Shown here one piece after another: positions 12,122-12,193 of a stretch of 22,930 bases of DNA. Every line of letters begins with the position of its first letter. Within the stretch, counting starts at the first letter, position 1. The stretch comes from a virus. The position numbers were made by a program, and so were the translations under genes. The stretch is from positions 1-22,930 of the IMG/VR virus record IMGVR_UViG_3300044844_000115; one strand, written 5' to 3'. Under the pieces are notes generated by a model. It was given only the letters and a program-made list of their open reading frames with translations, made no database searches and was not told the origin of the DNA.

Positions 12122-12193
12122 TTACTTGTTCATTACATACATAGTAACTTCAAAGCCAAAACGCATTTCAGTAGCTGCTGGTGTTGTCCACAT
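12122..12193 (-). CDS. pqqA: PqqA, peptide precursor of pyrroloquinoline quinone
   Basis: This 23-aa peptide has AGGAG 7 nt before its ATG. It begins [11 protein letters not shown] and continues [12 protein letters not shown]. PqqA of Klebsiella is also 23 aa, with Glu15 and Tyr19 as the residues that PqqE joins and that become PQQ. Here E15 and Y19 fall at exactly those positions, in the conserved G-x-E-V-T-x-Y context, with the family's MW at the start, PA at 5-6, R11 and N22. By recall of the Klebsiella peptide about 11 of 23 positions agree. No pqqB, C, D or E is in view, so host enzymes must process it. It is oriented with the late genes, downstream of the spanins, and has its own likely promoter. 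Chance coding of this pattern with a perfect length and ribosome site is very unlikely. Confidence 0.9.
   Translation of the reverse strand: [23 protein letters not shown]

What the first reader, a model, noticed from the sequence alone, without database searches (positions are those of the whole stretch)
12122..12193. Phage-borne pqqA: a PQQ precursor peptide as an auxiliary metabolic gene
A 23-codon gene with a strong ribosome site encodes a peptide with every PqqA hallmark: same length as Klebsiella PqqA, MW start, Pro5-Ala6, and Glu15 and Tyr19 in G-x-E-V-T-x-Y. PqqE/PqqD of the host crosslink this Glu and Tyr to begin PQQ synthesis. No other pqq gene is visible, so the phage would supply only the substrate peptide, the part that is consumed one per PQQ. 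This would keep methanol dehydrogenase supplied during infection of a methylotroph. An alternative is that it acts as a decoy that jams PqqD/E. It is too short for default gene callers, so it may be missed in related phages. I do not know whether it has been reported.
Basis: partly seen in the sequence, partly recalled or inferred. Interest (0 to 1): 0.93.

Follow-up and report, generated by a model that had tools for sequence, protein, structure and literature searches.

The report
Methylotroph phage carrying a PQQ-precursor gene

Summary
The 23-aa peptide [23 protein letters not shown] passes the Pfam PqqA and TIGR02107 cut-offs by almost a factor of two; no PqqE or methanol dehydrogenase is found in the window. 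Reference records leave it unannotated or overlay a "hypothetical". Glu15 and Tyr19 are invariant even when the search leaves them free, and pN/pS is about 0.18. It sits as a promoter-like element + RBS + pqqA cassette at a variable site between convergent operons. Hosts (Methylophilaceae) carry 1–12 pqqA but one pqqE. Best reading: a substrate-only auxiliary metabolic gene feeding host PqqDE; a decoy is disfavoured. Phage PqqA is not wholly new (Lake Baikal 2020, reservoir sediment 2026), but I found no report of its near-universal, solitary occurrence in methylophages. In passing: prophages inserted in the PQQ-importer gene pqqU also carry pqqA. Function is inferred, not shown.

The parts
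12122..12193 (-). pqqA, 23 codons + TAA: [23 protein letters not shown] (Glu15, Tyr19)
   Evidence: PF08042 40.3 bits; TIGR02107 38.8 bits; 100% identical peptide in phage P19250A and in 67 of 161 host copies examined
12201..12205 (-). Shine-Dalgarno AGGAG, 7 nt before ATG
   Evidence: sequence; a purine-rich RBS precedes the start in the relatives listed
12236..12267 (-). Conserved promoter-like element CCGATGTGTAAAAAACCTAATTCTGATACTAT with extended -10 (TG-n-TACTAT, 12244-12236)
   Evidence: present upstream of pqqA in the 26 relatives wherever pqqA sits; matched in 38 phage upstream regions and 0 host ones; promoter function inferred
12287..12301 (-). Short inverted repeat TAGTG-CTTTT-CACTA between the late operon's last gene and the promoter-like element
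   Evidence: kept or slightly degenerate in many relatives; role (late terminator?) inferred
12194..12235 (-). 5' leader module 'A' (AAGATACGCTCAATAAAGAGCTAACTAATTAGGAGATTTATC); two other leader modules replace it in relatives
12052..12080 (.). Imperfect inverted repeat GTAACG...CGTTAC in the conserved 3' flank shared with the convergent early operon
   Evidence: sequence; stem in the RNA fold but energy not better than shuffles; terminator role only suggested
12303..12582 (-). End of the late operon upstream of pqqA: two overlapping small ORFs (68 and 81 aa), position like Rz/Rz1
   Evidence: phrog_9219, unknown function; Rz/Rz1 assignment is inference
12749..13186 (-). Endolysin (peptidase M15 type), the anchor used to collect relatives
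   Evidence: phrog_894 2e-40; 122 relatives in IMG/VR

Best explanation
The gene encodes a functional PqqA that the phage expresses in infected Methylophilaceae as a substrate-only auxiliary metabolic gene. The host's own PqqD/PqqE would cross-link Glu15 and Tyr19 of the phage peptide, and PqqF/G, PqqB and PqqC finish PQQ. PqqA is consumed one molecule per PQQ while the enzymes are catalytic, so a 23-codon cassette with its own promoter-like element is the cheapest way for the phage to hold the PQQ flux, and hence methanol dehydrogenase, when host transcription declines. SHOWN here: identity as PqqA, phage location, absence of PqqE from the window, purifying selection, invariance of Glu/Tyr, cassette structure, association with methylotroph phages, host pqqA multiplicity with a single pqqE. 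INFERRED: expression during infection, processing by host PqqDE, benefit to the phage.
For: PqqA models well over cut-off. All cultured methylophage records found carry it: P19250A, MEP301, Venkman, MEP401, MEP402, Melnitz x4. 24 of 25 close relatives with at least 1 kb downstream of the endolysin have it, 0 of 47 distant endolysin relatives. Terminase-related Pelagibacter, Rhodoferax and other phages lack it. With codons 15 and 19 left free in a second scan, all 136 unique contexts held have Glu and Tyr (the set includes loci also seen in the first scan). pN/pS 0.175 across 131 unique phage coding sequences, 0.179 within the window's group. PqqE absent from 50 of 50 pqqA-bearing viral records at the cut-off and from the window. 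All 121 Methylophilaceae genomes searched carry 1-12 pqqA, but one pqqE over cut-off in each of 5 tested; published counts agree (3-12 pqqA, one pqqBCDE set; PMC4109929). A 72-kb viral record carries both pqqA and a PQQ alcohol dehydrogenase.
Against: No transcript, peptide or PQQ measurement exists here. Hosts already hold several pqqA copies, so a further one may add little. One close relative (L303) and one MEP402-like phage (MW202697) lack it, so it is not essential. PQQ in methanol dehydrogenase may last longer than an infection. Only 1 of 50 pqqA-bearing records has a methanol dehydrogenase gene, so the link to methanol oxidation rests on host biology.
Confidence: 0.77

Rival explanations
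1. Decoy: the phage peptide occupies PqqD/PqqE without being turned over and so lowers host PQQ synthesis.
For: A lone substrate homologue could compete with host PqqA; L296 has a more divergent peptide AWTKPSATEHRIGFEITCYAMCR.
Against: Glu15 and Tyr19 are invariant and the commonest phage peptides are identical to the commonest host peptides; a decoy would be expected to lose the reactive residues. Even L296 keeps both.
Confidence: 0.06
2. PqqA is supplied not for methanol oxidation as such but to raise PQQ for another effect, for example other PQQ enzymes or closing PQQ-gated outer-membrane receptors against competing phages (PQQ blocks a PqqU-targeting phage, PMC12124388).
For: PQQ-bound PqqU is thought unable to bind phage IsaakIselin (PMC12124388); enterobacterial prophages sitting in pqqU also carry pqqA.
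Against: No PqqU-like receptor is known to me for methylophages; not tested here.
Confidence: 0.09
3. A neutral passenger: host pqqA genes are numerous, short and often solitary, so phages pick one up by chance.
For: Hosts have up to 12 scattered copies, so capture is easy; the site is recombination-prone.
Against: Strong purifying selection, presence in unrelated phage types, retention in 24 of 25 relatives and a phage-specific promoter-like element.
Confidence: 0.04
4. The locus acts mainly as a small RNA or regulatory leader and the peptide is secondary.
For: Leader modules are conserved within types; L303 has non-PqqA sequence after the same promoter-like element.
Against: The protein sequence is kept while synonymous sites and the leaders change; no Rfam match in the window.
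Confidence: 0.03

Closest known systems
PqqA of the host (Methylophilaceae), PF08042 / TIGR02107
   Same: Identical peptide to the commonest host form; same length, Glu15/Tyr19
   Different: Phage copy is under a phage promoter-like element not seen upstream of host copies and lies in a phage genome without PqqE
PqqA of Lake Baikal methylophage VP_266 (PMC7678222)
   Same: Phage-encoded PqqA in a virus of Methylophilaceae
   Different: Baikal phages are T4-like and described as encoding methanol dehydrogenase; the window phage is podovirus-like, without it, and carries pqqA as a separate cassette. That paper describes one case, not a general trait
Virus-encoded pqqA/pqqD/pqqE in reservoir sediment (PMC13188868)
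   Same: pqqA listed among viral AMGs
   Different: Interpreted as phosphate solubilisation; no analysis of the peptide or of methylophages in the passages read
Cyanophage psbA (D1) AMG (own knowledge)
   Same: Phage supplies the short-lived part of a host energy system
   Different: psbA is a photosystem subunit that turns over; PqqA is the substrate of a cofactor pathway
Morons of lambdoid phages (own knowledge)
   Same: Promoter + gene inserted between phage operons, at a variable site
   Different: Here the cargo is a 23-codon RiPP precursor; terminator not clearly identified

Membership tests
PqqA (PF08042, TIGR02107) | Profile score above the curated cut-off over the whole model | tested here: met
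   40.3 vs 21.1 bits; 38.8 vs 20 bits
PqqA (PF08042, TIGR02107) | Glu and Tyr in E-x-x-x-Y as cross-link sites | tested here: met
   Glu15, Tyr19; invariant when left free
PqqA (PF08042, TIGR02107) | Cross-linked by PqqE with PqqD and converted to PQQ | not testable with these tools
   needs biochemistry
Auxiliary metabolic gene of a phage | Located in a phage genome, not host contamination | tested here: met
   IMG/VR record with terminase, ejection, tail and endolysin genes; same locus in 26 relatives
Auxiliary metabolic gene of a phage | Homologous to a host metabolic gene and under purifying selection | tested here: met
   best host copy 67/69 nt identical; pN/pS 0.175
Auxiliary metabolic gene of a phage | Expressed in infection and changes host metabolism | not testable with these tools
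   no transcriptome or assay
Moron (autonomous inserted cassette) | Own promoter | tested here: inconclusive
   conserved extended -10-like element in the 26 relatives; the generic consensus scan did not flag it; not measured
Moron (autonomous inserted cassette) | Presence/absence between conserved flanks in close relatives | tested here: met
   L303 keeps both flanks but has other sequence in place of pqqA; pqqA lies 558 to 4482 bp from the endolysin in relatives
Moron (autonomous inserted cassette) | Own terminator | tested here: inconclusive
   inverted repeat downstream, fold not better than shuffles
Decoy/inhibitor of PqqDE | Loss of reactive Glu or Tyr | tested here: not met

The most novel reading that the evidence does not exclude
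Supplying PqqA is a general strategy of phages whose hosts depend on PQQ: nearly all methylophages, several other marine and freshwater phage groups, and prophages that insert into the PQQ importer gene pqqU carry a solitary pqqA, so phage infection controls a cofactor by providing its consumable RiPP precursor.
Probability: 0.5. Interest if true: 0.85.

Novelty: new variant of a known kind. Interest (0 to 1): 0.74.

Why it matters
It would be an auxiliary metabolic gene that supplies the consumed substrate of a cofactor pathway rather than an enzyme, and it would be present in almost all phages of a globally important methanol-oxidising family while absent from their annotations. It makes a testable claim about methanol turnover in infected cells in lakes and the sea, offers a practical marker for assigning viral contigs to PQQ-making hosts, and may help explain why these hosts keep up to a dozen pqqA copies with one set of pqq enzymes.

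Tried and rejected
The search for related loci refuses a 23-aa query; replaced by degenerate DNA patterns. Megablast of the window against phage records: no match, so relatives were collected through endolysin and tail proteins. The apparent pqqA of 'Acinetobacter phage MD-2021a' lies in a chromosomal contig with pqqABCDE and was discarded. The one weak PqqE-model match in a pqqA-bearing viral record (27.7 bits, cut-off 381) is far below cut-off. An attempt to show that two relatives are complete by exact end repeats failed: the contig ends repeat the pqqA locus only at 82-97% identity, partly with gaps, so completeness is not claimed. A -10-like element upstream of pqqA in phages at large is enriched against mononucleotide shuffles, clearly only in the strongest class (6 against 0.9 expected), so a general promoter claim is not made. 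No PDB sequence match to the peptide. Structure prediction was not attempted (minimum 30 aa).

Full report
OBSERVATION. The reported stretch encodes, on the minus strand (12193 to 12122), [23 protein letters not shown] followed by TAA. The plus strand reading is meaningless. An AGGAG box lies 7 nt upstream of the ATG. The peptide scores 40.3 bits against Pfam PqqA (cut-off 21.1) and 38.8 bits against TIGR02107 (cut-off 20). Shuffled windows reach at most 8 of 23 identities. The record is a 22,930-base IMG/VR virus with terminase, ejection, tail, endolysin, Erf recombinase and replication genes, without tRNA, Rfam match, PqqE or PQQ alcohol dehydrogenase. It is probably a fragment, so absence of a gene from it is not absence from the phage.

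DISTRIBUTION. tblastn against 50,697 phage records finds the gene in P19250A (100% identical), MW202481, MEP301, Venkman, MEP401, MEP402 and four Melnitz phages. In P19250A, MEP301, Venkman and MEP401/402 no feature is annotated there; in MW202481 and the Melnitz phages the feature under the match is a 'hypothetical protein' that, in the two records opened, lies on the opposite strand. The 'Acinetobacter phage' hits are discarded: the one opened is a chromosomal contig with pqqABCDE. The positive phages belong to different types (siphovirus-like P19250A, podovirus-like MEP301, Zobellviridae MEP402, T4-like Melnitz). The nearest neighbours of pqqA in these contigs match phage families such as RecE-like exonuclease, endolysin, head and terminase proteins. 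Contigs may repeat the same phage from several samples, so these are not independent events.

CLOSE RELATIVES. Endolysin relatives in IMG/VR give an unbiased test, since pqqA played no part in their selection. Of 25 close relatives with at least 1 kb of downstream sequence, 24 carry pqqA (26 positives when shorter ones are counted); none of 47 distant endolysin relatives does (up to 5 kb searched on each side). The distance from the endolysin varies from 558 to 4482 bp. L303 has both conserved flanks but different sequence in place of pqqA. The 26 positive relatives share the element CCGATGTGTAAAAAnCyTnATTCTGwTACTAT (minor variants allowed) before pqqA, followed by one of three leader modules. 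This element is found upstream of no host pqqA examined. So pqqA is an exchangeable cassette between convergent operons, with a probable promoter of its own. The generic promoter scan did not flag it, and promoter function is inferred. Phages related through the terminase but infecting Pelagibacter, Rhodoferax or unknown hosts lack pqqA; one MEP402-like phage of unknown host (MW202697) lacks it too.

SELECTION. Across 131 unique phage coding sequences pS is 0.577 and pN 0.101 (ratio 0.175); within the window's group the ratio is 0.179; host copies give 0.119. A second scan with codons 15 and 19 left free found Glu and Tyr in all 136 unique contexts held. The window coding sequence is at most 67/69 identical to a host copy (Methylotenera oryzisoli MAG, L129) and its peptide is identical to 67 of 161 host copies.

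HOST SIDE. The host pattern scan listed Methylophilaceae and MAGs named only as Betaproteobacteria, Nitrosomonadales or Proteobacteria. In a family-wide search 121 of 121 genomes carry 1-12 pqqA. Five genomes tested have one pqqE over the cut-off each. This agrees with the published remark that Methylophilaceae have 3-12 pqqA and one set of the other genes (PMC4109929), and with five pqqA copies of unequal expression in a methylotrophic PQQ producer (PMC9851590). PqqE is absent from 50 of 50 pqqA-bearing viral records at the cut-off. Of 50 pqqA-bearing viral records scanned, 48 carry one pqqA and two repeat the locus at their contig ends. A 72-kb viral record carries a PQQ alcohol dehydrogenase as well, in line with the Baikal phages (PMC7678222).

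MECHANISM. From established PQQ biochemistry (own knowledge, and the papers cited within PMC7678222), PqqE with PqqD links Glu and Tyr of PqqA, and PqqA is consumed one per PQQ. A phage that keeps only this peptide in supply uses the host's catalytic enzymes. That fits the solitary gene, the intact reactive residues, the purifying selection and the phage-specific promoter-like element. A decoy should lose Glu or Tyr and none has. A passenger would not show pN/pS of 0.18. Whether the benefit is methanol oxidation or another effect of PQQ is open. Expression, processing and benefit are inferred.

NOVELTY. Phage PqqA has been mentioned for one Lake Baikal methylophage (PMC7678222) and among viral AMGs in reservoir sediment (PMC13188868). 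The methylophage papers searched do not mention it (PMC9004378, PMC10580990, PMC8024684). The near-universal, solitary, unannotated occurrence and the cassette structure appear unreported in the library searched, which lacks most subscription papers.

IN PASSING. A third pattern scan found 99 viral contigs with other PqqA types (four of them already seen), 96 with start and stop. Eleven of them are prophage contigs in which the 5' end of pqqU (yncD; PDB 6v81 match, E 8e-21) is interrupted at nearly the same codon about 240-265 bp from an enterobacterial-type pqqA, without PqqE. PqqU is the PQQ importer and a phage receptor (PMC12124388). Such a prophage would remove the importer and add precursor.

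Noticed in passing
L450, L454, L463, L471, L472 (10997-11061 and 11244-11510), L479, L484, L505, L510, L512, L522: Eleven prophage contigs (lambdoid-looking) carry an enterobacterial-type pqqA (MWKKPAFIDMRLGLEVTLYISNR or close) 240-265 bp from the broken 5' end of host pqqU/yncD, the PQQ importer and phage receptor; no PqqE in these records. Suggests integration into pqqU with a pqqA cargo next to the attachment site.
   Followed up: partly
L444-L538: Many viral contigs with PqqA types unlike Methylophilaceae (for example [72 protein letters not shown]), hosts unknown, including contigs up to 372 kb; neighbours include terminase, tail tube and ribonucleotide reductase families.
   Followed up: partly
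L303:5868-6126: The pqqA-less relative keeps the promoter-like element but has about 150 bp of other sequence with a possible hairpin (CACTAT...ATAGTG) in place of pqqA.
   Followed up: no
L296, about 960 bp after the endolysin: Divergent phage peptide AWTKPSATEHRIGFEITCYAMCR that still keeps Glu and Tyr; a candidate for altered specificity.
   Followed up: no
phage records CAKLQF020000010.1 and CAKLQH020000055.1: Labelled Acinetobacter phage MD-2021a, but the first (the one opened) is bacterial chromosome with a pqqBCDE cluster behind the pqqA match, so it appears mislabelled.
   Followed up: yes
MZ577097.1 76100-76195 and MW202481.1 2067-2195: Annotated 'hypothetical protein' features on the strand opposite to pqqA; probable wrong-strand calls that hide it.
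   Followed up: yes
window 6536-7330 (-): Phosphoadenosine phosphosulfate reductase-like gene (PF01507, phrog_424), another possible auxiliary gene.
   Followed up: no
window 2036-2794 (-): DNA methylase (PF01555 N6_N4_Mtase), possibly anti-restriction.
   Followed up: no
G024 (IMGVR_UViG_3300025120_009955) 34049-35731 and 41887-41943: 72-kb viral record with both a PQQ-dependent alcohol dehydrogenase and pqqA about 6 kb apart, similar to the Baikal methylophage report.
   Followed up: partly
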